DNA of 64,000 nucleotides from Hemileia vastatrix (Eukaryota; Basidiomycota; Pucciniomycetes; Pucciniales; Zaghouaniaceae): NCBI GenBank assembly GCA_030280995.1, contig JASXTE010000015.1, positions 5,939,001-6,003,000 of the forward strand, given 5' to 3'. The stretch's first letter is position 1; each line of letters opens with the position of its first letter. The position numbers were made by a program, and so were the translations under genes. Shown here in pieces: positions 12,134 to 59,599 of this stretch. The notes beneath the pieces are model-generated. The model worked only from the letters and a program-made list of their open reading frames with translations, did no database searches and had not been told where the DNA came from.

Positions 12134-13398
12134 TAAAGGTAGACTCTTACAGTTGCCTTGCTGTAAGCAGAATCAGAAGGAATTGGATAAACTGTAGAAA
12201 CCCTGTCTATCTAAGTAAAATAAGGGTTGCTCAAATAACTAAGCTTACTAGTCAACTTGAATTGATTTAAAATATTGATGAAACTCTGATTTTATGAAAC
12301 ATTATTGAGATTTAGAAGTAGCAACTGTTGGAAAAGAAATACTGATGACAACAATTAAGGTGTACCAGTGAAAGATCTGAAAAGATAGACTTATATATTT
12401 TTATAAAGATTTTATTTTAATGAGTTAAAAATAAAACATGTCCCTGAGATAGTGAAATTTCCAATGATACCCTATATGTGATAAAAATATAATTGTTGTA
12501 TTTTATTTCATTAGTTTTATGAAAAATATAAATGTTATAAGGGTATTATAATTTTATTTAATTTTGTTGAGTAATGAAAAATATGAAGGTGATTGTTAAT
12601 TTTCCCCCAAAAGACTTTCAATATCAAAAATAAAAGACAAAAAACATGTATCCAACTAATATTCTCTCCTCTATCTGATTCTCCTACTTTAGAACTTTTC
12701 AACAATACCCTACATGCATATGATCTACAATAAACTATTGATCTAACAAGCATAATAAATTCTAAACAAATTTTACCACAAAAGCCAAAATTTGCACTGG
12801 TGATCAGACTTTTCTACAGTGACCAAGCTTTGCACGGTTGATCAGACTGTTCTACAGTGACCAAACTTTACCACAGTGCCCAGACTTTTCTGCAGTGACC
12901 AAACTTTGCACTGGTGATCAGACTTTTCTACAGTGACCAAACTTTGCACTGGTGATCCGACTTTCCCATTGTGAGCAAATTTTTCCACAATGAGCTCTTT
13001 TTGCCATAATAAGCTAATTTTGCCAGAGTGAGCTAAATTTGCCACAGTGAGTTAATCTTGTCACCATGAAAGAATTTTTCCAGTACACTTCGCTTTTGCA
13101 CCAGAAAATCACCGGAGCAAACCGGAGTGCACCGCAGAACTGGAGCTCAGTGGCCATTCCATCAGCACACCATATCCACCAAAAATACTATAAGTCACTA
13201 AATCAAGTAAAACACTAAGAAAATAGTAAAATATGATAAAAAATCATCAAGACATAAAAGATAGAAAAAAATCTAGGCTATCCAATAATAATAATCATTT
13301 TCATCAAAAATTCCATATATCCAGCCTTATAATGAAGAAAATCGCTACTAATCTTCAAAAATAAATCTAAGTGGCATACCCAGATGTGGAATGCCACA
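12134..13398 (-). repeat. 5' LTR of element B
   Basis: Colinear with 2412-3607. It ends on the plus strand in the same GTGGAATGCCACA. It holds a 19-bp tandem array (about 12765-13080) that is longer than in the 3' LTR. The divergence between the two LTRs seen by eye argues for an old insertion. Confidence 0.88.
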
Positions 13399-15619: not shown

Positions 15620-16848
15620 TGTAGGTAGACTTTTACAGTTGCCTTGCTGTAAGTAGAATCTGAAGGAGTTGGATAAACTGAAGAAAACCCTGTCCTTCTA
15701 AGTAAAATAAGGGTTGTTCAAATAACAAAGATCTCTAGTCTACTTATTTTGATTGTAATATATATATAAAACTCTGATTTATATAAACACTTATTGAGAT
15801 TCAGAAAAAAACAGCTGTTGAGAAAGAAATACTGATTACAACAATTAAGGTGTACCAGTGAAAGATCTTTAAAGAATGACTTTTATGTTTTTATAAGATT
15901 TTACTTTTAATGAGATAAAAATAAAAACTAGTCCCTGAGATGGAGACCTTTCCAATGACACCCTATATGTGATGAAAATATAATTGTTGTGTTGTATTTC
16001 AAAAGCTTTATGAAAAATATAAATGTTATAAGGGTATTATAATTTTATTTAATTTTTTTGAGAAATGAAAAATATGAATGTGGCTGTTAATTATTAAAAA
16101 AGACCCTTATTATCAAAACCAAAGTGACAAAAGCATGTAGAAGACTAATATCCCCCCCTTTCTATCTGATTCTCTTACTCCAGACCTTTCCAACAATATC
16201 CTACATGCATAGGATCTACAATAAACTATTGATCTAATAAGCATAATAAATTATAACCAAATTTTGCCACAATAGCCAAATTTTTCCACAGTCACCAAAC
16301 TTTAATACAGTGTCCAAACTTTGGTACAGTGACCAAGCTTTGGCACAATGACCAAACTTTGGCACAGTGACAAAACTTTAACCCAGTGACCAGACTTTCC
16401 CATTGTGAGCAAATTTTGCCACAATGATCTAGTTTTGCCATAATGAGCTAATTTTGCCAGAGTGAGTTAAATTTGCCACAGAGAGATAACTTTGCCACCA
16501 TGACCAAACTTTGATACAATGACAGAATTTCTCCAGCACACTTCGCATTTTCACAGGAAAATCACCCGAGAAAAATGGAGCACACCAGAGCACTGGAGTT
16601 CAGTGGCCATTCCATCAGCCAACCATATCCACCAATAATACTATAAGTCACTAAATCAAGTAAAACACTAAGAAAACAGTAAAATATGATAAAAAACCAT
16701 CAAGACATAAAAGATAGATAAAAATCTGGGCTATCCAATGATAGTAATCATCTTCCAAAATTCCAAATATCCAGCCTTATAATCTAGAAAATTGCTACTT
16801 ATCTTAAAAAATTAGCCTAAGTGGCATACCCAGATGTGGAGTGCCACA
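15620..16848 (-). repeat. 5' LTR of element C
   Basis: Starts TGTAGGTAG and ends GAGTGCCACA on the plus strand. Contains the 19-bp array at about 16253-16535. Its outer edge cuts a copia RT at 16849, so C inserted into an older copia element. Confidence 0.85.
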
Positions 16849-21679: not shown

Positions 21680-21822
21680 CAAAGGGTATGGTATGTACTT
21701 GTGAAATTCATGGATAGTGCTAAACACAGGCTATGCAGTTAGGAAGCAGAAACAAGTAATGGTACAAAATTCATGCTTAGGTAAGAGAAATATCTCTTGG
21801 ATAAAAGCTATGCTCTCCCATT

Positions 21823-21990
21823 AGGGGGTGTCAGTTCTGGCAAATCCGCACTTAAATTAAGTGCGGATTTCAAACCAAATCAGCACTTACAAATCAGCAC
21901 TTAAATTTTGCAAAAAAGTCACTTATTTCAAAAAAGGGTGTCAGTTATGACCTCAAATCAGCACTTTTTTCCCGTTTTTTTTCACAACCA
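21823..21990 (+). repeat. left TIR and subterminal repeats of the Harbinger element
   Basis: After the TIR comes a palindrome with 12-bp arms and a 5-bp centre. AAATCAGCACTT-type repeats follow at about 21880-21970. At 21937 a second copy of the terminal motif appears (GGGTGTCAGTTATGACCT). GTCACTTATTTCA here is mirrored at the right end. These are candidate transposase or ORF1 binding sites. Confidence 0.75.
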
Positions 21991-22193
21991 AATTTTGGCC
22001 ACAAAACATCCCTTCCTTTCTTACCCCATCCCTGTAACATGTGACACACTGACCTTCCTCGCTACCTACCCATCAATCCTTGGCACACACCCCTTCCTGA
22101 CATTTTCAATATTTTGACCAGGCATGTTTACATTCTTTTTTACCTATTTCTTCTACTTTTTAATCTTTTTTATTGTTATGTGCCAGTTTCATA

Positions 22194-23508
22194 ATGCCTC
22201 CCAGACATTCCAAATCTCAAAAGGTAACTCAAAAATATGCTTCGTCACAAAAGTCTCCTCGTAAAGCAAGCCCTACACCTGAAAAATCAAAGTCAGGTTC
22301 AGGTCAGCTTAAAAAGGATGATTATCTCATCATAATCAACTTCCTTATAAAAAAATCAAATTTTGAAGCATGTTTTGGATGTGAAAAGTCCACTCGTATT
22401 GGACGTCCACCTTCTTCAAAGGTTAATGGCTACTTGTTGATGGCCAATGAAGTAAGGAAGAAAACAAGGGGGAGAATCGATATCAATCCTAAACAAATGA
22501 AGGAGAGATTTAAGAGTTACCATTCAAAATATAAAAAGACTCATCATGCTGCAAATGAAACTGGCTTTGGTATTGACAATGATGATTTGGAGATTGGAAT
22601 TACTACTGTTTCCAAAAATCTCAATGTCATGTGTCCTTTCTATGAGGAAATGGATAATCTTTTTGGATCCCGAGTTGATGTAAACCCTTGGTTTCTACAC
22701 GATACTACTAAGCATATACCCTCTGGATCCAAACCTTCCTATAATCTACCCAAAACACCTTTACTTGAACGAGATCAATCCCCTCCACCTTCTAACCATA
22801 GTTCAGCTGAAGATGATCACAACTATCAAGCAGAACAATTATATCGCAGCAGATCTGAATCCTCAGAGGCCCAAAACTTAAATGTATGTTTACTTTTTGT
22901 TTTTTCTTCAATTCTTCTCTGAATTTCTCTTTCATTCTAGTCTCCTCCTACTCAAACTCAATCTCCATTAAATAATCTCAATTCCCAAAATGTGAATCCC
23001 ACTTTAGAAGCTGCTTTAGATGAACTTCCTGAAGCTTCTTGTTCAAACTCCAAACTAAAGCGTCGAGCCTCAACTTCAATGAACTTGAACCATCTATTAA
23101 AACGTGGTAATACTTCAACAAGCTCATTTGGCTCCCTTGAGGATTATTTTGAAAAAAAAGATATAAGTAGGTTTCATTTACTATATATCTTAATCATTAA
23201 CTCATTTATTTATTTATTTCAATTTAATTTTCTCAGCAAAATCAACTATTGCGAATAATGCCCTTGACTTTGAGAAGATGAAGTTTGATCATATGCTAAG
23301 GAAAGATCAGAAAGCCTTAGATTTGGAAGAAAAAAAATTTGAGGCAGAGCAGATGGAAAGAGTAAATGACCGTCAATATCAAAGAGAAATGGCTTCTTGT
23401 GAATTGGAAAAACAAGAGAGTTTTAAAAAAAAAGATTTCATTATGGAATGTGTTAAAAATGGCCAATCTTATGAGGACATTAAAAAATTACTTGACCTTT
23501 TCAATTGA
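22194..23508 (+). CDS. Harbinger ORF1, spliced DNA-binding-type protein
   Basis: Three exons are predicted: 22194-22883, 22941-23166 and 23237-23508. The introns are 57 and 70 bp with GTATGT..CTAG and GTAGGT..CTCAG ends, and the phases join to a 395-aa protein. The ATG at 22194 is used because the open frame upstream begins without one. Residues 1-50 are basic and Ser/Lys-rich. Residues 50-170 look like the SANT/trihelix-type domain found in rust-fungus Harbinger ORF1 proteins (KQMKERFKSYHSKYKKTH, then MCPFYEEMDNLFG). A Pro/Ser-rich middle follows, then a Lys/Glu-rich probable coiled coil. Harbinger ORF1 proteins generally help the transposase bind DNA and enter the nucleus. The family assignment is from memory, not a search. 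Confidence 0.75.
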
Positions 23509-24218
23509 TAAATTGTTTTTCTAGTCAATTTAATTTTGTTTGATTTCTTTTTGGTAATATTTTCTTATATTCTGACTTATAAAAGGTCTTGAATATAGTA
23601 CGTTATTTTTGAAATTTTTTTGAAAATATCATACATTTGTTCTATCTTTACATTCAAGTCAATAAGTTTGCTTATACTTAAAATTTGAAAATATAATAAA
23701 AAATTTCTATCTTTACTTTCATGTCAATAAGTTTGCTTATCTAAATACTTCTAAGTCAATAAAATTCAATATCTCTTTTTCAAATTTGGCAATACCCTCC
23801 CCTGCATTTTATTGAAACAAGGGGTGGGTACCACCAAATTTTTCTAAGTCATCAATTTCACATGTCAGATTTAAAAAATTGGCAATACCCTCCCCTGAAT
23901 TTTATTGAAGTAAAGGGTGAAAGTCATCAAAATTTAATATAATTACATAAATTAATTAATATATAAATAAGATATGTCAAATGTACTACTTTTAAAGTAA
24001 TGACAATTACTCTAGCCAAAATGCAGACCAAATCGAGAAACAAAAGTTTGGGACTTTCCACAGGTATAAGCTAGAGGAACCCCATGAAACAAATTAATGT
24101 TATCATGATTACCTTTTATACAACACAAGGTCGTTGGCCCATTACTTTAATTTCATAAATTGAAATATCATATTTATTTATTATAAATTTATGGAAGAAT
24201 ATTAAATATTTGGTGACT
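23509..24218. other. AT-rich spacer inside the Harbinger element
   Basis: Between the convergent ORF1 and dioxygenase genes. A 30-bp segment (GGCAATACCCTCCCCTG core) occurs twice, near 23787 and 23881, and another pair centred on TCAATAAGTTTGCTTAT near 23655 and 23725. No gene is seen. It probably holds the 3' ends of both genes. Confidence 0.5.
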
Positions 24219-25406
24219 CTACGAATCCCTATACTTTTTAGATCTACCTAAAGAATATTTAAATTTATCACCTTTTTCTTCTTTTTTTAACTTGTTTATT
24301 TGTTGGATTAACTTGTCACTGATCTGGAAAGAGAAACCAAAATGTGTGAAGTCTTGACAAGATTCCAAACCTGGAGGAGCCTTTGTGGTTTGGTGATTAT
24401 TGTAAGAAGAATTCCAAACTGTTTCAATGATTCCATTTTCTAATCCAAAATCGATTATACAACTATGATCCGGGAAATATAATCCATGTCCTTTAATTTT
24501 TGCAGGTGATGGAATAGGTTGTCCAGTGATAGGATTAATATATGTGAAAATTCCATAAGTGAGGTAATTGGTATCATTTGAGTCGGTGTGAATTCGGTTA
24601 TGAAATCCAGAATGAGTGATTATAACATTTGAAAACATTAGATCATCACTAATATCTTCCCATTCAGAGTCACACCAATTTGGTATTCCAAATCTCGTAG
24701 CAACTTCATGATTTTTTTGAAAAGCTTTATTGAAGAGTTTTTTAAGTTGAAGAGCAAGAAATGAATTAAATGAAGGTAACGTATTCCATTTTCGAAAATC
24801 ATTATCTAATTCAGCTTTAGATAAAGATCTGAGTAAAGAATATATGCCTATTTGAATTAAATTCAGTAAAATGATATTAAAAAATCCAGAAAAGTTTTTA
24901 AACATACCAAGAGAAAAACCTTTTTCAAATTCTGGTCTACATCCAATTCCAATCATGATTCCACCCAACAAATTCTTATTCCTTAAAGATAAGCAAACCA
25001 AAGCCATTTGATAGAGTGTTATGATGATATCACAGAGTTGATTAAATGATTCATCTTTTAAACCATTTAAAGAATGGGTTTTGTAAATAATTTGAGGTTT
25101 GAAACTATTATTAATAACAGCTTTAACTTCATCACCTCCAGTTTCATTTAAATAATGTATATTTTCAGGTAAAATTTTCAGATATTTTCTTTTTTTTTCA
25201 ACTTTAGTTTTATAGTACTTGATTTTTGAAATATGGCCAAATATTTGATCCAAGTGAATTTCTTTTTTTAAATTTCTTTTATTTCGATACTGTTCTTTTT
25301 TTGTCAATGTTTTAGATGATGATTGGAAAGAAGTTGAATTTGAAGATGATAATGAATTTAAAGAAGATGAGAGTGAGGTAAGTGGTGAATCTGAAGTTAA
25401 AGACAT
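24219..25406 (-). CDS. TET/JBP-like 2-oxoglutarate/Fe(II) dioxygenase (candidate DNA base oxidase)
   Basis: An intronless, uninterrupted 395-codon gene from the ATG at 25406 to the stop at 24219. Residues 1-50 are Ser-rich then basic. Residues 145-170 carry GIGCRPEFEKGFSLGMFKN, a landmark I associate with fungal TET/JBP relatives. The core has the metal motif HTD at 273-275 (RIHTDSND), TYGIFTYINPITGQP at 283-297, LYFPDHSCIIDFG at 309-321, and a distal His at 338. At 355 it reads FTHFGFSFQIS where related proteins, as I recall them, have Arg to hold 2-oxoglutarate. TET/JBP enzymes oxidise 5-methylcytosine or thymine in DNA. It lies inside the transposon, downstream of the transposase on the same strand. 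Other DSBH oxygenases are possible; activity is unproven. Confidence 0.78.
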   Translation of the reverse strand: MSLTSDSPLTSLSSSLNSLSSSNSTSFQSSSKTLTKKEQYRNKRNLKKEIHLDQIFGHISKIKYYKTKVEKKRKYLKILPENIHYLNETGGDEVKAVINNSFKPQIIYKTHSLNGLKDESFNQLCDIIITLYQMALVCLSLRNKNLLGGIMIGIGCRPEFEKGFSLGMFKNFSGFFNIILLNLIQIGIYSLLRSLSKAELDNDFRKWNTLPSFNSFLALQLKKLFNKAFQKNHEVATRFGIPNWCDSEWEDISDDLMFSNVIITHSGFHNRIHTDSNDTNYLTYGIFTYINPITGQPIPSPAKIKGHGLYFPDHSCIIDFGLENGIIETVWNSSYNNHQTTKAPPGLESCQDFTHFGFSFQISDKLIQQINKLKKEEKGDKFKYSLGRSKKYRDS

Positions 25407-25650
25407 GTATTTTTCTACTTAAAAATTTGTTACTTTTCAAAAACCCAAAATTATACATTTAAAAAAAACTCACCTAATTTAAATTAAAAAATAAAAAATC
25501 CTCAAAAGACAAATAAGAATTTTTTTTATTTCACTTGAACTTGATAAATATTTTTCTCTAAATTAAAAAAAAAATAAAAAAATAAAAAATAAAATCAATA
25601 AACTGTTAAATTTTTTTAACACTTCCCCATTCCCCTAAATTCCCCTCTCC
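25407..25650. other. AT-rich 5' flank of the dioxygenase gene
   Basis: No clear TATA box of standard form. Before the solo LTR inserted, this sequence lay about 250 bp from the transposase break point, so the two genes may have been co-transcribed. That is inference. Confidence 0.4.
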
Positions 25651-25655
25651 AAAGC

Positions 25656-26832
25656 TGTCAGCCTAAATATCCTTAGGACTGAGTATTTCTTATGCTTAAA
25701 ATAAGATAACCTTAACTAGATTAAGCTTATATCTTAAAAATAAGGTTAAAATAATAATATATATTATTTTATTATATATATATAATTATTATTCTATTAT
25801 ATAATTTATAATAGTTTAAATAGCTTATCCATGGCCTAATAATACTTATTAAGGTGTTAATGGAGTCATAATATACTTATCTTAAGTGATATGAAGTAAT
25901 TATTGACATACATAAGCTTATATGTATACATAAATCTCATATTCAGTGAAATATGCAGTATATTATGTATATTTAGGTATATAAGTGGGTTTTAGCCCCT
26001 TAATAGCCTATAACCTTTGTTTTTCTGCTTATTTTAGGTCATATGGACGAGAAATCAGTGGACTCACAACGCCTACAGAAGCATAGACACCTATATCAGG
26101 CGCATACACCCAGTTTGGACAACTAAAATTACTTCCTTGGATGGTTATTCACGGATTTATGGGTTGGAAAGATGTTTTTGGGTTAATGTGGATGCTTGGG
26201 GATGTTATTGGGGGCTTGGAAATTTTATTTGTTTCCTTTATATGCTTTTAGTTTCATTAAATCTCTTTTTGATCATTTATTTTACCTGTTTCTTTATGGT
26301 ATCCGCTTTTATCTGGGTTTTCTATTTATGGTATGACTCTGTGTTATTATTAATAGTGATGGAGGGTCCTTACTGGAGGTCTGGGTGTTGAAACTGCTTG
26401 AAGTGGACGCCATGGGGAGGTGATGGGCCCTCACAGTGCTGTAATTGCCGGGGATAGCAGTGACATCATCTGGATTGAAGGTCTGTGCACTCCAGTGGAT
26501 TTGGGTATAAGTAAGAAGGGATTTTGACGGTTTATTATCATCATTCAATTACTACACTTCAAACAAACACTTCAATACAATTATTAGTATTCAGAAATAT
26601 ATTATAAAGCCCTTATAAATTGATATTATCTTTATAATAGCTATAACTATATTTTATTCTTCTATTTTCCACCACTAGCACGCATTTAAATCCAAGTATT
26701 GTGAGTTTTATTTGAGTATAACTATTCTATTAGTCTTCCCCTGAGGTGTAATCACTAAATCATTTATTAATAAGTAGTAGGACCATAAAATAACACTATT
26801 ATATCATACTTATATACTAGACTATACTGACA
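25656..26832 (+). mobile_element. solo LTR with target duplication AAAGC
   Basis: Begins TGTCAGCC and ends ACTGACA, 1177 bp, flanked by AAAGC at 25651-25655 and 26833-26837. A diverged inverted copy is at 54146-55323. It holds no convincing gene. It splits the 3' part of the Harbinger transposase from the dioxygenase gene. Confidence 0.9.
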
Positions 26833-26837
26833 AAAGC

Positions 26838-27728
26838 CCTCTCCCACCTCCCAAAAACCCTTGTAAAAAGAAGATACTGATTTTCATCAAAGAATTTTTC
26901 AGGTTCATTTGAAATATGCATTCTTTGGAAGACGTAGGAGTCATGACATGAGCCAGGATAGCCAGCGAAGAATGATATAAATTTTTTGTTTACGTCACAT
27001 ATAAGCTGAACGTTAATTGAATATCTATAAAGAAGATATATTTGTTTGTGTTAGTTTCAAGGAGGATGAAAGGAGTTAAAAATAATCTACCTCTTTTTAC
27101 GGTCAAAGTAATTGTTTCCACCTTGAGCAGGTTTCTGGCTCAAAGGAATAGTAGTACCATCAACAAAACCAATACATCCTGGAAAGCCCTCTGCTTGCAT
27201 AACCTGAGATGATTCAAGTCGCTCTTCTTTTGTTGGCCAGGTGAGAAGTTGAGATTCCAAGGAGTTGATGGCAGTGATACATCGTTTGGTATAAGTGTTA
27301 ACTGAACCATACTCTAAATCAAAGACATTTTCTAAACGTTTCAAAGCGGCTCCATTACCATTTGAACCCAATCGACATAGTGTGATGGCCAATTGAATTG
27401 AAGGATGTTGTTGTTCTTTTTGAGAATTATTGTGAAATATGGGATGATCCTGAATAAGCTCAAGCAATTTAAGGAAACATTCCTGAGAAGTCCTGAACAG
27501 CTGTCTAAAACTGGGTGTAGATAGGTTAAGAAGTGTTTGGATGGTGTACTTGGGAGTATGAAGTACTTGAGGCTTTCTGGGAAGAAGGTAACGTTTCCTG
27601 GCCATTTTTGATAAAACGACAAAATCTTCTTCTAGATCAGAATTGGAATCAGAGTCCAAGAGCAGTTCAAGAGCCATGAAAGTCATTGCTTTATTTAATT
27701 TATCACGATTTGAAAGTGAGGAAGGCAT
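26838..27728 (-). pseudogene. Harbinger DDE transposase, C-terminally truncated
   Basis: Exon 1 is 27728-27091 and exon 2 runs from 27024; the 66-bp intron (27025-27090) has GT..AG ends and restores the reading frame. Residues 60-160 form the helical N-terminal region; GFPGCIGFVDGTTIPL holds the first catalytic Asp (190), and after the intron GYPGSCHDSYVF holds the second (241). The protein follows the family to EKFFDENQYLLF, then loses similarity about 15 residues before the solo LTR. The segment expected to carry the catalytic Glu is absent, and nothing like it appears on the far side of the LTR. The enzyme that cuts and pastes the element is therefore probably dead. Confidence 0.82.
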
Positions 27729-27829
27729 GACTCTTATATGATATGATATGAAGATGTAAGTGATGTTTGATGTTTTGAGTTATGAAGTGTTATGCTGCGG
27801 AGTGCTGCGTATGAATGGTATGATGATGA

Positions 27830-28000
27830 CAAATCAGTGAAATGGGACTTGATGGTGAAATCAGAACTTTTGGTTGAGAAAGTGCGGATTTGAGTGAAAT
27901 AAGTGACTTATTTCATTTTGAAATCCACCAGTATTGGGGCTAGTGTGTTTTGGAAATCCGCACTTATTTAAGTGCGGATTTGCCAGAACTGACACCCCCT
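27830..28000 (-). repeat. right TIR and subterminal repeats of the Harbinger element
   Basis: Mirror of the left end: the palindrome here has the same 12-bp arms with a 4-bp centre, then TGCCAGAACTGACACCCCCT. GTGACTTATTTCAT and a GTGCGGATTTGAG repeat match the left subterminal repeats. Confidence 0.8.
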
Positions 28001-28239
28001 ATTGTTAGCAGAACACTTTTTAGTGGAACAAGATAGAACTAGAAGACAAAGTGGGTTGATAAGCAGAGCTCAAAAAAAAAGAAGTAAGATGGAAGGGTAT
28101 TGAATTAGAACAAAGGGTTTTACAATTAGTGGATACTCATATGGCAAGTGTGGGTTATTAAATTAGGTATGGAAGGTGGTACAGTACCTATTATTTAGTC
28201 AGGTTTCTTAAAAGTTTTGCGTATTTACAAAAGGTAGAG
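28001..28239 (+). pseudogene. 3' internal part of gypsy element K
   Basis: Continues 21680-21822 once the Harbinger element is removed. It is colinear with 56525-56761, including the CTCATATGGCA stretch and the AAAAGGTAGAG before the LTR. No intact frame. Confidence 0.65.
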
Positions 28240-28903
28240 TGTTAGGCGCTAATAGCTGTACTTGCTCAAATTTTTCAGGCACTATTGGAACCAAGATTTA
28301 TTCTAAAAAATGCACAAAGATAATTGAGATACTTAGTTACCGTTTGATATTCTTGAAATAGTGTTGAACTTGTGTATGAAAGCCTGTAGGGAAAGGAAAC
28401 ATAGGGGAGAGGCACTGAACATACAATGTGTATAAATAAAAACTCACTTTTAAAAGTAGAAGCGACATGATTAATATAGAAAAATAAAAAGTAAAATACA
28501 ATTATTATTCATAGAAAAGAAATTAGATATATTTTATTTTTTTTTACATCTGGTATGTATACCAGAATAGTGCTTTAGATTTATTTTATTACTAAAGTAA
28601 GGATAGTATAAGATAGAGAACTTCAAGAGGAAGTGACTATGAGTACTAGCGCCTACTGAGAGTTTATCTTTCCAACAGATAGATTACTTATATTAAAATA
28701 TATTATTTCTTTCATTGAGTAAATTACACTATTATCCCATTCTCCTTTCTTCCCCAAAATATATAAACACACTTATAATATGTGCTTTCACTATCTTTAA
28801 ATATTAGAGTGGCATGTGCTTCTTTTTAAATATGTTTTAGAAAAGAGAACCAAAACATCTTGGATTGTGTCTATAGCTTGGCATTATAGAACTTTCTTTT
28901 TCA
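28240..28903 (+). repeat. LTR at the end of K and the start of H
   Basis: Starts TGTTAGGCGC and is 664 bp; the copy at 56762-57425 has the same length. The sequence before it matches the other copy, as for a 3' LTR. The sequence after it (TTGGTGTCCCAATGGTGG, 28906-28923) looks like a primer-binding site, as for a 5' LTR. One LTR may therefore be shared by two elements in tandem. Confidence 0.65.
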
Positions 28904-30330
28904 AATTGGTGTCCCAATGGTGGCTGGCAGATTGTAAGTTTGGTTATTATGTTGTTTTTTAGGGTTTTTTCAAATAGGATATAATCAAGCCTGAACTTCA
29001 AGGAAGATTCATAGGCTCTACAGCAAGTGGATCAAGCCATTATAAGATGATATCATAGGGCTTTATTAAAGAATATAGTTGTTATAATCTTTAAGTGCTT
29101 ATTTATTTTTTTATTTTAGTAGTTCAAAGCTAGAATTGAACCTACAGCTACTAATTCTAAAGTCACTCAGGAGAGGGTAAAATCTCCCAATTCTAAAGCA
29201 TAAATACCACTTAGGGTTTTGACAATAATTAGGTGCAAGGATGAAGGCTTGCGTTTCACTGGAATCAACACTCAAAAGTTTTTGAGGAGGTTTGAGAAAG
29301 TGGTGGAAGTATATGGTGCATCAGGTGTTATTTTTTGTTGAAAATGGACAGAATTATGATATGGAGGAGCTGGATGGTCACAAAAAAGGCAATTGGATGG
29401 CTCTGAAGTCACAAACATGAAAAGAATGGCCTAATATTACAGAGAAAACAAGGTATACAAATAAAGTCCTAGATGTCCTTTTAAAAAGGCAAAAGCTAAA
29501 GGGGGTATCAAAGACCCTAAATATTTAAAAAAAAATTGAAAAGATTTTTATCAGGTAGTAGATTATTTGGTCAATAACAAGGATTTTAGTGATAATAGTG
29601 TGTCATTATATTGTTTTTGTGAGGCATTAGCGCCTGAGTTAGAATTTTGGGTGAAGAAGTGCCATGAAAACAAAGGAAAATTGGTTAGGAAGAGAAATGG
29701 GGATCATAAGTACCCAGGAATGCAGGCTGTGGAAACAGTGGTGGAAGATGAAATGAATTTGTGTTTCATAGAGCACCAAGCAGCTAAAGTTTATTTGGAG
29801 GATTTAGAGGTGATAGAGGTTTTGTCTAATACTGGATCACCTTTTTCAATGCTGACCCCAGAAGTCAAGAGAGTATCAAAGGATTCAAGTTCAGTAATGG
29901 CTAGGATCAAGAAATTGGAGAAGAATTTGAGTGAAGCAGCTAAACACAAGCTATGATTTACTCCTTAGCTATTGCAGTTTTCTTCTATGGTATAATATTA
30001 TTGTAATAAAGAAGGCCATACAATAATGAGACATAATTATCTTTAGAAGGATAAGGAAGATAAATTTGTTTTGTAAGAAGGTACAGTGCTGATGTTAGAG
30101 GATGGCACAAAACTTGTTATGGATAAGTATCAAGGGATTAGAGCTAAATTCATCAATCATATTAACATGAAGGCCATTAAAATAAATACTAGTAAGGGAA
30201 AGGAGTCTGTGGATAAAAACACAAAGTCAGTTAATTTTTCAGTCACTTTTGCAGTATTGTATTTTAAGTTCATTGAGGGGGCTTTTGCAGTTCCACTCAC
30301 TACAGCGTGGTTGGAGATTTAAAAAAAAAC
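28904..30330 (+). pseudogene. gag remnant of gypsy element H
   Basis: Broken frames from about 29220 give a capsid-like region (TQKFLRRFEKVVEVYGASG). Then comes a 129-codon open piece (29567-29956) with FCEALAPELEFWVKK, KYPGMQAVETVVEDEM and a C-terminal Lys/Glu-rich helix. That order matches the Gag C-terminal lobe of basidiomycete gypsy elements. A further open piece (30086-30322) has no motif I know. No zinc knuckle was found. Many stops; inactive. Confidence 0.6.
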
Positions 30331-30829
30331 ATAAGAAAATAGTTTGGCCAAATTTTAGTAGGCTAAGAAGGGCTGGGGCCAAGTATGCAAATCCAGTAGA
30401 CATCAAGGATATAGGGTAAACTACAGGAGAGATTTTACCTGTATGACTTGAGGATGTGGAAATGGAGGATGAATATGGGAATAAAATGGATTATGACATG
30501 GAAAAGCATATCAAGGAAAAACATTTAGAATAGTCAGAAGTAGTTCAAAGGAGAGTGGTATTGGTAGAAGGAACTCCAGGTGCCAAATATAATACTGCAA
30601 AGAATCCGGCTTGTAGGGCACAAGCTGGTGAAAAGGAGACTCAACAGAAATGAAGAATGCAGTGCTAAGCTCATGCAGAATATGCTAGAGCAGCTGGAGA
30701 TTTGATTACAGAATGCTTAAATACAACAGTCTCAGTTCCATTGGGGGTGCTAACAGCAGTAGCTCCAGAGATATAAAATATAATAGTGGATAAGTGTAAG
30801 AAGCAAAGAATTGCAAATTGTGTTGAGTA

Positions 30830-31091
30830 TCACTACGTAATATATGGGGTGGACTTGCTAGAAATTTGTCAACCTGAACTCAAATGGAACTCAGATGGAA
30901 CTCAGACTGAACTCATACTGAACCCATACTGAAATCTACTTGAACACCCACCTAAAACTGTTCTGCTGAGTGGTGTTCATCCCTGATTGTGTAGTTCCTT
31001 TATCAATAGCTCAATGTCTGTTCAATCTGTGGAAAGTATGGGTCCAAGGTTGTGGACTTTCTAGCAAGTCCACACCCCATAATTTGCGGTG
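30830..31091. mobile_element. 261-bp MITE, copy 1
   Basis: Inverted ends CACTACGTAATATATGGGG and CACCGCAAATTATGGGG (read inward) with TA on both sides. Inside are diverged forms of the palindrome GGACTTGCTAGCAAGTCC and a run of 10-12 bp units of the form TGAACTCAGA. Removing it with one TA restores a GAG TAC GAT codon series in the protease of element H, which fixes the edges. The TA duplication suggests a Tc1/mariner-type helper. Confidence 0.85.
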
Positions 31092-31660
31092 TACGATTTG
31101 GAAAAACATTCATTTCAATTAGTCGTGGGATTACTGAGGGTACCACACTATGCAGGACCATTAGGGTATTTAATGGTTACAACTAATGGGATGCAGATTA
31201 GAGCACTAGTACAAACTGGCTCTCAGGTTAATGTAGTTTCAGCAGAATATGTTTTGAATCTAGGGTTGCCAGTTAAAGATGGAAAAGGAACTGTTGCAGG
31301 TATTGGAGGTGCTAGTTTACTGGTTTTAGGGGTAGCTGAATAGGTCAAAATGCGGGATGCAGGAGCATCAAGAGATCTACACTTGTATGTTCTATAGGTG
31401 TAGTAAAACCAGTCTGAGGATCACCATTTTAGATGGATTATTCAGAAACAATAGAATATTTTTTGAATAAAACTATAGGAATCAGTATTATGGGTGATGA
31501 TGGTATTACTGCAACAGCAGTCTTAGTAGCGCCTAAATATGGTGGCTTGGAAACCAAGTATGTTGGATCTGTGAGTTTAGAGAAGGAAAGAGAGTTTTAT
31601 GAGGAAGAGGTGAATGGACATCCACCAGGGTTGCTCCAGTATTTTCATTAGAGATTGGCA
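31092..31660 (+). pseudogene. protease remnant of element H
   Basis: Encodes GPLGYLMVTTNGMQIRALVQ followed by TGSQVNVVS. The catalytic DSG of the family is changed to QTG, so the aspartic protease is inactive. IGG and LHLYV motifs follow as in element C, then MGDDGITATAVLVAPKYGG. Stops lie at 31341 and near 31395. Confidence 0.78.
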
Positions 31661-37631: not shown

Positions 37632-38460
37632 TGTCAGCCAGGCTACTAGACTTACCCAGTGAAATAATTAATTATTTACTGGATGAAGCCGCACATTATC
37701 ATCTTTAATTATTATTTATTTAATTATCATTTAGTTACATTAAAATTAGTTATAAATTAACTAGTTACAGAATGTTAAAATTAAATTAATTAATTAAATA
37801 AATAAGTAAAATTAAAACTATAATTTTGTCCCTTATATTTTTCTCTAACACCGTGCTCAATTGACAGGTTGGGAAAAATAAAACTTTATATTTAAAAAAA
37901 TAAAAATACAAAGATAAAATAAGATTTAGATATTCAAATAATATTAAATATATACAAAAAAAATAAATTTCTTATTTGGAATTGACATTTACAGTAAATA
38001 TTAAAAATATTGATGTATTTCTGACATACTCTGTAAATACATCTTTTTGACACCTTCTTTTTGGAATAACTTTATTATTTGAAATACTCTTTCTGGAATG
38101 TTCTTTTTCTCTCTCTCTTCCTACTGTTTTTAGAATTTGATTCCCGTTCTTTGTCTCTCCTTTGCCTATAAAAGGCCTCTCTTTTTGTTGTCTTTTGATC
38201 ATTCTATTTTACCAACTCATTTTATTACAATAAACAATAACACTAACACTTATTTATTATAACTTATATCTTTAGTACTTACAACAAAACGTAATTCTAT
38301 TCTATAACTTATATAAAATATTTAAATTTACCTCTTACTTTAAGAAAAGAAATCATACTTGATTAAGAAATACGTACCTAGTTATTGAGAGTCAAATAAT
38401 ACCTTAAAATCTTCTTATAAAACCTTACCAAAGCTTCTAGACCAAAAGTGACCCTTGACA
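37632..38460 (+). repeat. 5' LTR of element E
   Basis: Starts TGTCAGCC and ends CCTTGACA. TATAAAA at 38167-38173 (CCTATAAAAGGCC) is the likely promoter. An open antisense stretch (37972-38202) is kept in both LTRs but has no motif, so it is not called. Confidence 0.93.
38167..38173 (+). promoter_or_regulatory. TATA box of the element E LTR
   Basis: TATAAAA within GCCTATAAAAGGCC; the same box is at 46116-46122 in the 3' LTR and at 62751-62757 in element F. Transcription would start a short distance downstream. Confidence 0.75.
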
Positions 38461-38640
38461 ATTGGGAACCTTTCCGAAATATCGACGGCGCAACGTTACT
38501 TGAGGCGTAATCGAGGGGACCATCGGCGTACAAGCACCTGTAAAGGACGAGTGGAGGCGAGAAAACGACGAACGTCATACGTCACGTGATAAAAAGTTTT
38601 GCTGCAAACGGGAATTGAACCGCGCTCCAAAACTTAAGTT
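38461..38640 (+). other. primer-binding site and CpG-rich leader segment of element E
   Basis: ATTGGGAACCTTTCCG starts one base after the LTR; TGGGAACC (from 38463) is the likely tRNA pairing site, and element F has TTGGGGGCCTTTCCG in the same place. The next 170 bp contain many CG pairs, unlike the body of E. A GGTTCAATTCC motif, like a tRNA B box, is on the minus strand near 38610-38625. Confidence 0.6.
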
Positions 38641-38920
38641 CATATACTGACTAAAGATCGTATATATTGTGGTAATTATTGTGATTACTATTTGTGGGTT
38701 ACTCTTCACTCTTCATTTGCTATGTATTTCCTTTTACTCAGCACTCTGTAAGTGGCATTAATTTGCTCATTTTGCAGGGGGAGGTGTCTGGTAATTGGAA
38801 TTTATTTTTATTATTCTATTTTTTTTTATTTTTCCTGGTTGACCATAATAGAGCAATAACTGTTCTTAGTCCCAGAGGTAATAAAATAATTATATATTAA
38901 TATTAATTATTATCATTTTT

Positions 38921-39308
38921 CAGTTGACAATTGTCCTGATTAATTTGAATTTTAATTGTTCCAGTTGACAAACTGTCCTGACAATAATATTTTTATTAAA
39001 TAAAATAATTATTATAATTTTTCAGTTGACATTTGTCCTGATTAATTAATTGTTCCAGTTGACAAATTGTCCTGACAATTATATTTTTTTTAATAAATAA
39101 TTAACATTTCATTACTTCAGTTGACTTTGAGTCCTGGTAATCCAATAAATCTTTTTAAGTAATAAAATTCATATTTAAATTACTTCAGTTGACATTAAGT
39201 CCTGGTAGTTAAGTAATCAGTTAAAATAATTTTTATTAATAAAGATTCATATTTGATTATTTCAGTTGACAATAAATCCTGGTAATAAATTAGTTGATTT
39301 AAATCCTG
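38921..39308 (+). repeat. array of eight small stem-loops in the element E leader
   Basis: Copies at 38921, 38962, 39023, 39056, 39118, 39186, 39263 and 39292. Seven begin with CAGTTGA and the last with TAGTTGA; all end in TCCTG. CAG pairs with CTG outside a two-base TT bulge, and the inner stem varies but mostly still pairs: GACAA/TTGTC, GACT/AGTC, GATTT/AAATC. It lies between the primer site and gag, where retroelements keep packaging and dimerisation signals. Each copy also follows a pyrimidine run and CAG, like a 3' splice site. Confidence 0.75.
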
Positions 39309-39521
39309 AAAATAAAAATTAATAGAAATTCTAATTTATTTCTACAGTTTATTGCATTATCCTGGTTTTAATTTTTTTTTTTTATTAATTTTATTTAAAG
39401 TTGATTTTATCCTAAAAAGATTTTTTATTATTATTTTTATTTTATTTCTGTCAAATAAAAATTAAAAATAAAGACTAATTAATTTTTTGTCTCTTTTCCT
39501 TCATTTCAGTAGAATCTTAAA

Positions 39522-41039
39522 ATGACTGATCAAAGTTGTTTTGCTGCACGTGAAGAAGAACTAGTCTTAATTGATTATGATGAGCCTACTTCTGTAATTT
39601 CTCCTTTAACAAGAAGAATTTCTCAAACTAATAAATCCTTGCCCCAAACAGGATGTGGAAATGGAAGAAGTAGAAATCCTAGTGGACAATACTCAGGATC
39701 AGAAACCCAGGACAAACCCACCAGAAGAGCTTCCAAGAGGCTTCAAGATAAAAAAGATGCCGTTGTCCCAGCAGATAAAGAATCTGTCAACCCACATAAA
39801 GGAGTTAAAGACAGACAGCTTAAAACTAAAGGTAAGGGTAGATGCCTTGGAAGAATGGGAGAAAAGAACAAATACTTCTCTCCAAGAGAAAAGGAAACCT
39901 CTTCCTCCCATGGATCAACAACAATTGGCTCCCCAATCCCAAGAGATGGTGGAAGTGTCCAAGTGGAAGTGGGACTGGCTCAACACACAGTGGGACTACT
40001 TAGCTCAAAATCAGCATCAATTACCTCAGGTAGGTCCATCAAGGCCCACCCAGGCAAACCCCACTCCTCCCCACCCTTATCAAGGAGGCAAAAGAAGAAG
40101 GAAGCCCAATATGGTGATACCCAGCAAACCCTGGTACGTCCCTCTATTGATTCTCAAGTGCCTTTTCTTGTAGCTGACTCTGTTCCTTCAGGTAAATCTG
40201 GAAGGCAGGATGAAACCTTGAGACCTATAGAAGCTGGGAATAGTAGACAGTTATCTCATGTATCTAATCCATTACTTTTAATTGCTACCTCAATGATTAA
40301 TCCTGATATGGCTGTGATTGATGAAACTCTTGACCCTGAGTTCTATGAGAGTCTGGAAATTTACTCAGTTTCCTTATTGAGAAACACTCCAGATGTAGCA
40401 AGAATTAATGATGAGCACTTGAGAGATATTATTGCCAAGCAAAATCATATAATGAACAATATGCAATTGACTCAGAGATATAATAGTTTGTTAACTGATC
40501 AGGGTTATCAAGCATTAAAAAGTGAAGCACAGAGAGTCTCTGATGAATTGTCTCATTACAAAGCAACCCATGAAAAGAAAATTGCTTTATGGCAAAATAT
40601 AAAAAATGATTTGTCTAAACTAAAAGATACTGTATCTGCCTGTTGCCAGGAGGTAGAAATAGATAAGATAAATCTGAAAAGATTGAGTGACCATTTATCA
40701 TCTTTTCAACATAAAAACCAATTATCTTTTGCAACTTTCAATGAAAGTTTATCTAGTCTTCCAAGAATGAAAACAAGACTAGCAACCATTGAAGAAACAT
40801 TGAACTCATTGTTAAATGACCAAAAATATTCTGACAATTCTGTGAAGGAACATATAGTGCAGGATGCTCAACCAGTACCTGTGGCTAGTTCATCTAAAAT
40901 AAAAATTGATCCAGAAATACCTGTTGATAACACTGAGTTTCCATCAAAAACTGATGATGCACCAGGATCTGCAACAGAAGTAAACAATGAGATTTCAGCA
41001 CAATTAGAGAAATTACAGCTGCTTCTTACTCAGAAATAA
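39522..41039 (+). pseudogene. gag, N-terminal part, of element E
   Basis: The ATG at 39522 opens 505 codons to a TAA at 41037-41039. Beyond that stop the same frame continues into the capsid domain, so the stop is internal. Residues 1-45 are acidic, similar to the start of the element F gag. Residues 46-220 are rich in Ser, Lys and Arg and coincide with a segment of different base composition that is also open in the +1 frame. Residues 255-505 are helical with heptad-like Leu and Ile. The N-terminal part of Gag in this group is usually an assembly region. If the stop is a mutation this element is inactive; readthrough is not excluded. Confidence 0.75.
39643..40173 (+). other. overlapping +1 frame in gag of element E
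   Basis: The +1 frame is open for about 175 codons with protein-like content: an acidic start (MEEVEILVDN), a probable coiled coil (IKNLSTHIKELKTDSLKLKV), then KWKWDWLNTQWDYLAQNQ and a Pro-rich tail. The composition is richer in G and C than its neighbours. It reads more like a Gag segment than the in-frame product, suggesting a segment taken up from another element out of frame, or true dual coding. Confidence 0.5.
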
Positions 41040-44000
41040 GCTAGTACTAAGGAGACTCCTTCAAATCAAAAGAATGGGCCAAAACTTGACCAGTACCCAA
41101 CATTTGATGGTGATTCTTCCTCTGATTGGCAACAATTTATTTGCAGAATTGATAATTTAAAAAATTCTTACAAACTCCCAGATGAGGAAATTGTGTCCAA
41201 GTTAATTTCTTTGTTCACTAATGTTGCCCTGATGTGGTATGAATCTGTTCTCCTGGATGGGAATGACTACTCATGGGAGGAATGGAAGAAATTAATTAAA
41301 GCACAATTTGGTGGCTCCAAGTTCAGAATGGCTCAACAAAGGCAGTATGAGGAAACTAGATATAGCTCTTCTACTGATAAACCTATTGAGTTTTTAATGA
41401 AACTTGTAAAAATCTTAAGGGCAATGGACCCAAATATGGAGTTTGATTTATGGAAGGACAGGATCCTCCATAAATTACCAATGTCTCTGAGAGACTTGAT
41501 TGTGGCTAGGACTGAGTTCTCCAAAGAACCCTCTTCTTTCATTAATACTTGCAATGAGATACTTCTAAACAATAAGTATGATGCAAGAAGATTCATTCCT
41601 AGGACCCCTTTGGAGAAACCCTCCACTTACGAACAAAAACCTCTGGAAAAGGTTGGTAAACCATCTGCCCCTGTTGCACCAAAGAAGTATGCAACAAACA
41701 CTTGCTTCAAGTGCAACAAGCCTTGGAATAAAGGCCATGTTTGTGACAGGAAGATTAATCTTGTGGAACAAACAGAGGAGCATGCTGATGACACAGTGGC
41801 ACTGGATGATACGTCAAGTGATTGTGCCAGCAATATTTCATATGAATCTCAACAAGAAATCTTGATGCTGGAAGAAGATATTCATTATTTAAATACTATT
41901 GACATTGATAATAATGATTTATCTACAGTTGAGGATGCTGAGATCATAATAAACATTGAGGATAACTCAATTGTTATTGCCCCTCTTAAGGCACCAGTCT
42001 TGATTAATGGAACCAGCATTGAAGTTGATCTGGATTCTGGAGCTGGAGGAAGTGTAGTATCTGAAAGAGCACTTGCCTCAGTAGATCAAGACTATAAATC
42101 TAAACTGTTGCCTATCATTTCTGAAAATTGGAGAGGGTATGGCTCTTTTTTGTCCCCCATTGGTAAATACAAAGCCACAGTGTTTTTTAAATATAACCAT
42201 GGTTTTGTAAGAGCTATTTGTGATTTTGTTGTCATGAAAAATGATAACTTGAGCAATTGGTTTATTGTAGGGAATGATATTATAACCAAGTATGGCATAA
42301 AATTGGATCCTTCAAACCAATGTTTCACAATGGGGATGAATGGGAAGAGAAAATTTAAAATTTCCTCCCCTAAAAAATTATTAAAACCAGAATTGAACAC
42401 ATGTAATTCTGTGGTTCAATATAAAGGAAGATCTAAAAAGGAAATGCATGCCCTTATGTCTGAAATTGACAATGCCTCTTTTGGAGAACAACTTTCTGGT
42501 GAGGATAAAGATTCCATCATTAACTTGATAAAATCTTTTCCTATGGCTTTTGCTCATGGGTCACATGAACTGGGATTAGTTAAAGAGGAAATGAAACTTT
42601 CATTGTCTTGCCCATTAACTGATATACCACCTAGTTTAAAGAAGAAGCCTTATCCTGCTTCTCCCACAAAGAGAAAAGATATTGAAGATAATATCTCTAC
42701 CCTTTTAAAAATGAATATTGTTGAAAAGTTAGTTGAAACACCTAAATATTGTGTTATCTCACCTGTCCTAATTTCTTATGAGAAAGATAAAGCCAGGTTA
42801 TGTGGTGATTATAGAGCACTAAATACTTATACTGTTGATGATATCTATCCTTTACCTAGAATCAGCTCTATACATGCTACTTTACAGGGTGCTAAATATA
42901 TCAGCTGTTTGGATGGTAATAAGGGATTTCACCAGGTACCTGTTGAGAAAAATTCTTAGAACTTTCTGATGATTGCCACTCATATGGGTATTTATAAGTA
43001 TATTAGGATGCCATTTGGCCCTAAAAATGCCCCTTCTGTTTTCCAAAAAGTAATGGATAACACATTCCATCAAGAGATAATTGAAGTTTGGCTGATGGTT
43101 TATATTGATGATATCATTATATTCTCAAAAACATTTGAGGACCATCTTAAACACCTGTGTAAAGTATTCCAGAAAATGGATGAAATAAATATGACACTTG
43201 CTTTGAAGAAATGTAAATTTGGTTTCCATTCTTTAAAAGTTCTTGGTCATGTTGTTTCAGGCTTACAGATATGTGTTGACCTGAACAAAGTGGCAGCCAT
43301 ACAACAGGTGAAAGCTCCTACAACAGTGAGAGAGCTCCAAAGTTTTTTGGGAATGTGTGGATACTATAGACAGTATATTAAAAATTACCAAGTCATAGAT
43401 TTACCCCTTACCCAATTAACTAGAAAGGATGTTGCTTTTGTCTGGAATAGTGAAAGACAAAGAGCCTTTGACACTATGAAACACTGTTTGATGTCAGCAC
43501 CAATTCTTGCTTTACCTGACTTTGATCAACCATTTGTTTTGTACACTGATGCCAGTTTTATTGGTCTTGGTGCTGCCCTCCATCTAAAACAAGTGATAAA
43601 TGATAAAGTTTCAGAAGTAGTAATTTGTTATATTTCAAGAACCTTGAGAAATAGTGAATTGAAATATGGTGCTACTCAATTAGAGTGTTTAGCTGTAGTA
43701 TGGGCTCTAGAAAAGCTTCATTATTACCTAGATGACCAGAAATTTGAACTTGTCACTGACTGCAGTGCATTTAAATCCCTTTTAAACTTGAAAACACCTA
43801 ATATAAATATGTTTAGATGGCAGCTGGCTGTTCAAGAATACAGAGGGAGAATGACAATTATTCACAGAGCTGGTATTGGTCATTCAAATGTGGATATGTT
43901 ATCAAGGTTACCCTTACCAAATGATGACTCAAATCCTGCTTATGATCCTGAGGATGAAATTATCCATATCCATGGGATATATGTGGTTGATATGGAGGAA

Positions 44001-45542: not shown

Positions 45543-45568
45543 CATTTTTTTATTTATTATTTTTTTTT

Positions 45569-45580
45569 AGAGTGAGGGAG
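45569..45580 (+). other. polypurine tract of element E
   Basis: AGAGTGAGGGAG directly before the 3' LTR. Confidence 0.8.
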
Positions 45581-56149: not shown

Positions 56150-56761
56150 GTGGTGAGTAGAGGGAGACTGTGTTACATATCATGAAGTAGCACAGAAAAT
56201 TTCTCATTAGCAGGAAGTGCAACAAAGGGGTTTACTGGAAGGATGGTTATGGAAGATCAAAAAAGGGGTCTTCAAAATTTTAGAAAAAGTAGACTCTCTG
56301 TGTAAAGTTTTTTTCTGTGTACTATGGATATACAAGCGGCAGCAAGTAAAAGAAAGAGGTAAGTGCATACTGGACTATAAGACAGAGGGTATTGTATGTA
56401 CTTTTAAAGTTCATGGATAGTTCTAAACTCATGCTTTGGATTTAGGATGTCTTGAAAATAAATGGTAAAAAATTCATGCTTAGATGATAGCAATGTCTCT
56501 TGGCTAAAAGCTACATTAGCCCATCATTGGAAGAACACTTGTTAGAGGAAGATGGTAGCACTAGAAGAACAAATGGGTCTATAAGCAGCACTCAAACAAA
56601 ACGAATTAAGAAGGAAGGGTGTTTACTTAGTAGGAAGAGTTTCAAAATTGGTGGACACTCATATGGCATGTGTGGGTCATTACAATAGGTAGGGAAGGTG
56701 CTACAGTCCCTATAATTTATTCAGGGATCTCAAAAGCATTGGGTATGTACAAAAGGTAGAG
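56150..56761 (+). pseudogene. second copy of the element K 3' region (empty site)
   Basis: Colinear with 19985-20178, 21680-21822 and 28001-28239 in turn. It runs through the points where the 1.5 kb solo LTR (near 56385) and the Harbinger element (near 56525) sit in the other copy. A 67-codon open piece (56217-56417) includes LEGWLWKIKKGVFKILEKVD. Its function is unknown to me. Confidence 0.7.
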
Positions 56762-57425
56762 TGTTAGGTGCTAATAGTTGTACTTTTACAAATGTTTCAG
56801 GAAGTATTATAACCAAGACTTATTCTAAAAAATGTAAATAGATTATTGAGATACTTAGTTACTATTTGATATTATTTAATCTGCATTGAACTTGTGTATG
56901 AAAAACTGTAGGGAAAGGAAACATATGGGAATGGAACTGAAAATACAACATATATAAATGAACACCCACTTTTAAAAGTAGAGAGCAGATTATTAATATA
57001 GAAAAATAGAGAATGAAATAGAATTATTATTCATAGAAATGAAATTGGATATATTTTTTTTGTTCACATGGGGTGGGCTTACCAGAAGTAGTGCTGTAGA
57101 GTTATTTTATTCCTAAAGTAAGGATAGTATTAGATAGAGCGCTTCAAGAGGGGGTGAATGAGAGTACTAGCACTTACTGAGAGTAGATCTTGCCAACAGA
57201 TAGATTACTTATATTGAAATATATTATTTCTATCATTGAGTAAAGTCCTCTATTAACCCATTCTACTTTCTTCCCCAAAAGATATAACCACACTTACAAT
57301 ATGTACTTTTACTGTCTTTAAATATTAAAGTGGCAGGTGCTTCTTTTTAAATTAGTTCTCTAAAGTAGTACCAACTCATCTGGGATTGTGTCTATAGCTT
57401 AGTATTATAGAACTTTCTTACTACA
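56762..57425 (+). repeat. second copy of the 28240-28903 LTR
   Basis: 664 bp, starts TGTTAGGTGC and ends TTACTACA. The right flank is integrase sequence of another element. Confidence 0.7.
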
Positions 57426-59339: not shown

Positions 59340-59599
59340 TATATTTAAATGATTATTAAACATGGAGTTTATTCTCATAAAAATGTGATTTTTCTTTCTT
59401 TTTATATAATGGAGATCGTGGTAAGTAAGTTTATTAATAGAATTAAACCCATATCCTATTTTCACTTATATAAATAAGAGATATATAACAATCTTAAAAA
59501 ATTTTCTATTGAATAATTTTACTGTTAATTAATTTTAAAGAATTTTTCAACTTCAATAAATTTTTTAAAAATGGATAATAATCAAATATTTTAGAATTC

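What the first reader, a model, noticed from the sequence alone, without database searches (positions are those of the whole stretch)
21823..28000. A PIF/Harbinger-like transposon carrying a predicted TET/JBP DNA dioxygenase
The element has inverted ends, a flanking ATT on both sides and an empty paralogous site at about 56525. Besides ORF1 and a transposase it holds a complete 395-codon gene with the HxD...H metal site and other landmarks of fungal TET/JBP proteins. In fungi, TET/JBP expansions have been linked to the KDZ class of transposons (Iyer and co-workers, 2014). Linkage inside a Harbinger element, if confirmed, would be a separate case. A transposon that brings its own 5-methylcytosine oxidase could remove silencing marks from itself or its siblings. 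The gene has no stop, although it sits among heavily decayed DNA.
Basis: partly seen in the sequence, partly recalled or inferred. Interest (0 to 1): 0.93.

Follow-up and report, generated by a model that had tools for sequence, protein, structure and literature searches.

The report
Rust-fungus transposon carrying a TET dioxygenase
A jumping gene in what appears to be the coffee-rust genome carries, between its own ends, a gene of the TET family, whose animal members help remove DNA silencing marks; the combination is already published for other rusts, but this family leaves different insertion marks and seems to have carried the gene for a long time.

Summary
Confirmed. Window 21823-28000 is a Harbinger-type transposon with inverted ends, an ATT duplication and an empty paralogous site. 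It holds ORF1, a TET-like dioxygenase gene (PF20515, E 1.5e-28) and a DDE transposase, broken here. Assembly figures match Hemileia vastatrix (coffee rust). About 9,900 end sequences exist. In an unselected sample of 31 end-pairs, TET sequence recurs between the ends in 11: 3 nearly full with ORF1 and transposase, 8 as a fragment. A relative at about 48-65% protein identity keeps the same gene order, so the TET looks like an old core gene. TET-bearing Harbingers in rusts were published in December 2025 (Kojima; 'PHISTA', TA duplications, no Myb/SANT protein; Hemileia not mentioned). This family differs: empty sites of 12 elements fit a 3-bp AAT/ATT duplication, and ORF1 weakly resembles Myb/SANT. 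Copies carry heavy C-to-T change at CpG, most at TCG, so a methylation-linked attack is plausible. TET-bearing copies show the same CpG bias as TET-less ones, and the commonest sampled form with both transposase exons lacks TET, so protection in cis is not supported; help in trans is the best remaining guess. Enzyme activity is untested.

The parts
21820..21822 (.). left target-site duplication ATT
   Evidence: 35 of 37 end-pairs show a 3-bp AAT or ATT duplication outside A-GGGGG...CCCCC-T; empty sites
21823..21870 (+). left terminal inverted repeat, containing an AAATCCGCACTT...AAGTGCGGATTT palindrome
   Evidence: 30 of 30 bases identical to the right end; arms 21819-21884/27939-28004, 79% complementary
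22194..23508 (+). ORF1, three inferred exons 22194-22883, 22941-23166, 23237-23508; spliced 395 aa; weak Myb/SANT-like stretch in the N half, charged C-terminal segment
   Evidence: splice by GT/AG; PF13837 listed for 5 of 5 copies, best E 0.0015, window copy 0.0087 with 16.9 bits against a cut-off of 27
23619..23928 (.). degenerate tandem repeats (65- and 93-bp units) between the convergent ORF1 and TET genes
24219..25406 (-). TET-like 2OG-Fe(II) dioxygenase gene; 395 codons unspliced, 375 aa after removal of the inferred intron
   Evidence: PF20515 E 1.5e-28; H253-x-D255 and H318 of the spliced protein
24848..24907 (-). inferred 60-nt in-frame intron of the TET gene (GTATGT...TAG)
   Evidence: at the same place 11 divergent copies have GTATGT/GTAAGT...AG stretches of 54, 56, 79 or 81 nt; one further divergent copy, L001, lacks the AG
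25656..26832 (.). solo LTR inserted into the element, AAAGC at 25651-25655 and 26833-26837
   Evidence: absent from sibling L043 at this place; second copy of the LTR at 54148-55321, 82%
26868..26869 (.). deletion junction: about 1.5 kb present in sibling L043 (its 1246-2757), including the last catalytic part of the transposase, is missing
26869..27728 (-). truncated transposase gene: exon 1 27091-27728, 66-nt inferred intron, start of exon 2; motifs FVDGTT and CHDS present, the part with the final E lost
   Evidence: exon 2 of three siblings is PF13359 DDE_Tnp_4, E 4e-26 to 3e-24
27953..28000 (-). right terminal inverted repeat
28001..28003 (.). right target-site duplication ATT
56382..56922 (+). 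empty paralogous site
   Evidence: gap-free alignment to the joined flanks, 541 bp, 80%

Best explanation
The element is a non-autonomous, partly decayed copy of a large Harbinger-type family in a rust-fungus genome that matches Hemileia vastatrix. The full element encodes ORF1, a TET-like dioxygenase on the opposite strand, and a two-exon DDE transposase. Shown by sequence: ends, 3-bp duplication, gene content, recurrence between the same ends, and the same gene order in a divergent relative. Inferred: the TET is an old core gene of the lineage that oxidises 5-methylcytosine in element DNA and so loosens host silencing for any copy with these ends. That would be a trans-acting good, used also by siblings that have lost ORF1 and TET.
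For: Identity. Recurrence: TET sequence between the ends in 11 of 31 end-pairs; both ends around the TET in 5 of 6 loci picked from the 20 stop-free rows (the window is one of the 20) among the 105 rows. Old unit: L070 has ORF1, TET and transposase in the same order and orientation at 48-50%, 49% and 57-65% identity; 17 of the 30 best PF20515 loci show an ORF1 3' end convergent with the TET, 13 show none within the 1.5 kb held, none is on the same strand. Long-term constraint: dN/dS 0.19-0.30 in 9 comparisons between TET subfamilies with dS 0.76-1.04. A methylation-like target exists: transitions in 44 of 247 TCG cells, 49 of 947 other CpG cells, 78 of 12,246 other C/G cells.
Against: No enzyme activity, expression or methylation was measured. 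The ratio of CpG to other change is the same in full TET+ copies (7.1) and TET-less copies (7.2), so no cis protection. In the sample 11 of 31 end-pairs keep both transposase exons but neither ORF1 nor TET, against 3 with everything. The window copy has W156C, G159E and C338F at otherwise invariant sites. No invariant Arg follows H318 in the 5-sequence alignment, where 2OG enzymes usually have one (recalled). Structure models failed (pLDDT 35 and 34), and sequence searches of the PDB found nothing. Only one divergent element (L070) was read across all three genes, and its right end was not fetched.
Confidence: 0.6

Rival explanations
1. The TET is a passenger: captured once, carried along, with no role in transposition; open copies persist only because they are young.
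For: Close copies diverge almost neutrally (pooled dN/dS 0.80, 21 pairs of 7 copies). The commonest sampled form with both transposase exons lacks TET (11 of 31). All 3 unselected full copies have a frameshifted TET (L036, L038, L043). 85 of the 105 scored TET rows contain a stop.
Against: Between subfamilies dN/dS is 0.19-0.30; 118 of 280 gap-free columns are invariant in five TET proteins down to 50% identity, the HxD...H residues among them; gene order is kept in L070.
Confidence: 0.22
2. It is simply another PHISTA family as described by Kojima 2025, with TA duplications.
For: 36 of 37 end-pairs do have TA on both sides of GGGGG...CCCCC; rust host; TET gene; third protein.
Against: In the ten elements whose empty sites were scored both ways, the 3-bp AAT/ATT model scores higher each time and the TA model leaves a gap of 3 nt or more near the junction. 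ORF1 is weakly Myb/SANT-like. The transposase was not placed on Kojima's tree.
Confidence: 0.3
3. The TET acts on another mark (6mA, or 5mC to a stable oxidised signal) or as a host-directed regulator, rather than as a demethylase for the element.
For: CcTET also oxidises 6mA, and oxidised methylcytosine may be a mark in itself (Kojima 2025). No cis protection seen.
Against: No data here on 6mA; the excess change is at CpG, which points at 5mC.
Confidence: 0.2

Closest known systems
PHISTA, TET+ Harbinger families of Puccinia and Austropuccinia (Kojima 2025, PMC12730594; abstract, passages, sections 10, 23, 24 part 1 of 2 and 34 seen)
   Same: Harbinger-superfamily transposase, TET/JBP gene, a third protein, rust hosts
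   Different: Described with TA duplications and no Myb/SANT protein; here a 3-bp AAT/ATT duplication and a weak Myb/SANT-like ORF1. Hemileia does not occur in its main text.
Nuwa and canonical PIF/Harbinger (as described in PMC12730594)
   Same: 3-bp duplication; transposase plus a DNA-binding protein with Myb/SANT
   Different: Target AWT instead of the usual TWA (recalled); carries a third, TET gene; Myb/SANT match here is below the curated cut-off
TET+ Kyakuja, Zisupton and Dileera (KDZ) elements and CcTET of Coprinopsis cinerea (from PMC12730594)
   Same: TET/JBP gene inside or related to a DNA transposon
   Different: Different transposase class; not compared by sequence here
HarbingerS of Phytophthora (SET methyltransferase in a Harbinger; cited in PMC12730594)
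   Same: Harbinger with an epigenetic enzyme
   Different: Histone methyltransferase, not a DNA dioxygenase

Membership tests
PIF/Harbinger superfamily | DDE_Tnp_4-type transposase | tested here: met
   PF13359 E 4e-26 to 3e-24 in siblings L064, L066, L043; in the window copy this part is deleted
PIF/Harbinger superfamily | 3-bp target-site duplication and terminal inverted repeats | tested here: met
   35 of 37 pairs AAT/ATT; empty sites of 11 elements and of the window element
PIF/Harbinger superfamily | separate Myb/SANT-type ORF1 | tested here: inconclusive
   PF13837 listed for 5 of 5 copies, best E 0.0015; window copy 16.9 bits against a cut-off of 27; no PDB relative; fold failed
PHISTA (Kojima 2025) | TA target-site duplication | tested here: not met
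   10 of 10 elements scored both ways fit the 3-bp model better; an 11th, L068, was listed under the 3-bp model only
PHISTA (Kojima 2025) | third protein without Myb/SANT domain | tested here: inconclusive
   weak Myb/SANT-like match
PHISTA (Kojima 2025) | transposase falls in the PHISTA clade | not tested
   PHISTA sequences were not held
TET/JBP dioxygenases | profile match to the Tet-like family | tested here: met
   PF20515 E 1.5e-28, 100.7 bits against a cut-off of 27
TET/JBP dioxygenases | HxD...H metal triad | tested here: met
   H253 in 12 of 12 and H318 in 11 of 11 other copies compared; D255 in all but L009, which has HxN
TET/JBP dioxygenases | oxidation of 5mC | not testable with these tools
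   no assay

The most novel reading that the evidence does not exclude
A Harbinger lineage distinct from PHISTA (3-bp AWT duplication, Myb/SANT-like ORF1) in Hemileia holds a TET gene as an ancient core component, co-diverging with its transposase. Its dioxygenase acts in trans for a population of up to about 5,000 elements (half of the ends counted), most of which are cheaters without a full TET.
Probability: 0.4. Interest if true: 0.62.

Novelty: new variant of a known kind. Interest (0 to 1): 0.5.

Why it matters
It extends transposon-borne TET genes to a rust genus not named in the published survey and to a Harbinger type that does not meet the published definition. It suggests co-inheritance of TET with its transposase, whereas the published picture for rusts is frequent transfer between superfamilies. 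With TET+, TET-fragment and TET-less copies sharing one set of ends, plus a strong TCG mutation bias in the same copies, the guess that transposon TETs fight methylation becomes testable from sequence reads alone.

Tried and rejected
TA duplication: rejected by empty sites. Of the ten elements scored both ways, eight have no gap within 12 nt of the junction under the 3-bp model; L062 (both targets) and L052 (one of two targets) have a single 1-nt gap there. Weaker alignments, whose output was cut, were not counted. TET as a separate insertion: no own boundaries found; the sequence from the left end through ORF1 and TET is collinear between the window and L036, L038, L043, and the order is kept in L070. 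The TET halves of the 3.4-3.8-kb copies (8 of 31): five share a stop after PAKIK or its equivalent (L041, L045, L046, L050, L058), L037 and L061 show no piece of 90 codons in the TET frame, and L042 runs on but with HxN; I treat them as deletion derivatives. Structure prediction of TET and ORF1 without alignment was unusable, hence no fold search. Homologues in the protein collection: none for the TET. Genome contigs, which holds bacteria and archaea: none. PDB: none. A TET-protection signal in mutation ratios: looked for, not found.

Full report
Where it comes from. The window is C67:5939001-6003000 of a genome of 747,610,610 bases in 791 contigs. Contig C26 is 71,415,227 bases, exactly the largest scaffold of the Hemileia vastatrix Race I assembly in PMC10652848 (747.98 Mb, 794 scaffolds, GC 33.78%; section 0 part 1 of 2 read). 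Total length and scaffold number differ slightly.

The element. The 30-base end is perfect on both sides. The flanks, joined with one ATT, match an empty site at 56382-56922 without a gap, 80% over 541 bp. Gene content: ORF1 (+), TET (-), transposase (-). Pfam gives PF20515 for the TET at 1.5e-28. In three siblings the second transposase exon is PF13359 DDE_Tnp_4.

What is broken here. Against sibling L043 (97% over the long shared parts) the window copy lacks about 1.5 kb with the last part of the transposase and has gained a 1,177-bp solo LTR flanked by AAAGC. The TET has no stop, but W156C, G159E and C338F fall at sites invariant in the 12, 12 and 11 other copies with a residue there. The open frame hides an inferred 60-nt intron: at the same place eleven divergent copies have GT...AG stretches of 54, 56, 79 or 81 nt. 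The 54-nt ones run into a stop if read through, and the 56- and 79-nt ones shift the frame. One divergent copy, L001, lacks the AG.

Target site. Among 37 convergent end-pairs (31 from contig C2, five picked TET+ loci and the window) 36 have TA on both sides of GGGGG...CCCCC, and 35 have AAT/AAT or ATT/ATT outside one further A and T. The exceptions are L039, which looks like a composite of two elements, and L067 with one extra base. Eleven of the 37 have an empty paralogous site in the DNA I held, at 78% identity or more. The ten scored both ways score higher under the 3-bp model, and the TA model leaves a gap of 3 nt or more near the junction. Two of the ten (L052, L062) show one stray 1-nt gap under the 3-bp model. 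The window's own site agrees with 3 bp. The duplication is therefore most likely 3-bp AWT.

Recurrence. The end sequence with up to 3 mismatches occurs 4,913 + 5,017 times; the reversed control occurs 0 times. From the 100 places listed I took every adjacent convergent pair under 10 kb, 31 pairs (recounted). TET sequence lies between the ends in 11 of 31: in 3 nearly full length with ORF1 and both transposase exons (L036, L038, L043; the TET is frameshifted in all three), in 8 as a C-terminal half in 3.4-3.8-kb derivatives. Of the other 20, 11 have both transposase exons without ORF1 or TET, one (L039) has ORF1 and the second transposase exon with part of the first, and 8 have less. In the protein search 105 TET rows were scored out of 18,713 candidates, the lowest at 81% identity; 20 have no stop, the window included (best-scoring rows, so not a random sample). 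Of six such stop-free loci fetched, five have both ends around ORF1, TET and transposase; L069 has no convergent right end and little transposase. At least nine TET rows lie 2-3 kb from a second-exon transposase row on the same strand (read by eye; one search scored 150 of 10,974 candidates).

Age and constraint. Locus L070 keeps the order ORF1-TET-transposase at about 48-50%, 49% and 57-65% identity, with a similar left end AATA-GGGGGTCTCA...AAATCCGC; its ORF1 has a stop and its right end was not fetched. Among the 30 best PF20515 loci, held with only 1.5 kb each side, 17 show an ORF1 tail convergent with the TET, 13 show none, and none is on the same strand. dN/dS is 0.80 pooled over 21 pairs of seven close copies, but 0.19-0.30 in nine comparisons of window, L066 and L067 with L019, L020 and L030 at dS 0.76-1.04 (the 20 intron codons were included, and L019, L020, L030 carry 8, 1 and 4 stops). 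So close copies drift, while the lineage was constrained.

Mutation pressure. In a 1.1-kb transposase-side segment of 37 copies, set against the column majority, transitions hit 44 of 247 TCG cells (17.8%), 49 of 947 other CpG cells (5.2%), 78 of 12,246 other C/G cells (0.6%) and 80 of 21,854 A/T cells (0.4%). Changes shared by related copies count more than once. Kojima 2025 cites TCG hypermutation in Pucciniomycotina repeats. So a methylation-linked attack on this family is likely. Between nearest pairs the CpG to non-CpG ratio is 7.1 in full TET+ copies (9, five of them picked for an open TET, and the window), 7.2 in TET-less copies (20) and 14.3 in TET-fragment copies (8); age and subfamily effects are not controlled. 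This does not support protection of a copy by its own TET.

Mechanism. Likeliest: a complete element expresses transposase, ORF1 and TET; the TET oxidises 5mC in element DNA so that expression and transposition resume; shorter siblings borrow what they lack. Shown: gene content, ends, recurrence, order, CpG bias. Inferred: expression, enzyme activity, target, trans action.

What is known. Kojima 2025 (PMC12730594; abstract, passages, and sections 10, 23, 24 part 1 of 2 and 34 seen) reports seven TET+ transposon lineages in rusts, among them fifteen Harbinger families, named PHISTA, with TA duplications and a third protein without Myb/SANT. Hemileia does not occur in its main text. Its figures and supplements were not seen, so I cannot tell whether its TA reading would survive the empty-site test. 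Iyer and co-workers 2014 is not held and is known to me only through Kojima and the finding. Searches of the open-access library for Hemileia with Harbinger or dioxygenase and transposon listed four and one papers, none on this association by title and abstract start; Porto 2019 (PMC6472787, one passage) counts 2,954 Harbinger elements. The kind is therefore known; the host and the two differing features make it a new variant.

Noticed in passing
window 37632-45880: An LTR retrotransposon: 300-bp stretches at 37632 and 45581 are 98% alike and long ORFs of 505, 588 and 857 aa lie between. Stretches in it served as empty sites for several Harbinger copies.
   Followed up: partly
window 54148-55321: A second copy, 82%, of the solo LTR that sits inside the TET element, on the other strand.
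   Followed up: partly
window 27998-31093 and 56520-59341: Two similar tracts, 80-90% alike in the listed pieces, about 28.5 kb apart; the TET element sits at the start of one.
   Followed up: no
window 3137-3271, 12785-12964, 16256-16513: Arrays of 19- or 38-bp units (ACCAAACTTTGCCACAGTG-like) in repeated tracts of the first 17 kb.
   Followed up: no
window 50001-51000: Extreme composition: GC 0.196 with GC skew -0.85, with A-rich tandem repeats at 50218-50310.
   Followed up: no
L033, L044, L047-L049, L051-L055: Short siblings with near-complete coverage of both transposase exons but almost no ORF1 and no TET; several repeat a segment from the ORF1 start (up to 4 copies of its first 24 codons).
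   Followed up: partly
L039: Looks composite: two ORF1 ends in opposite orientation around one transposase, with unlike flanking triplets.
   Followed up: no
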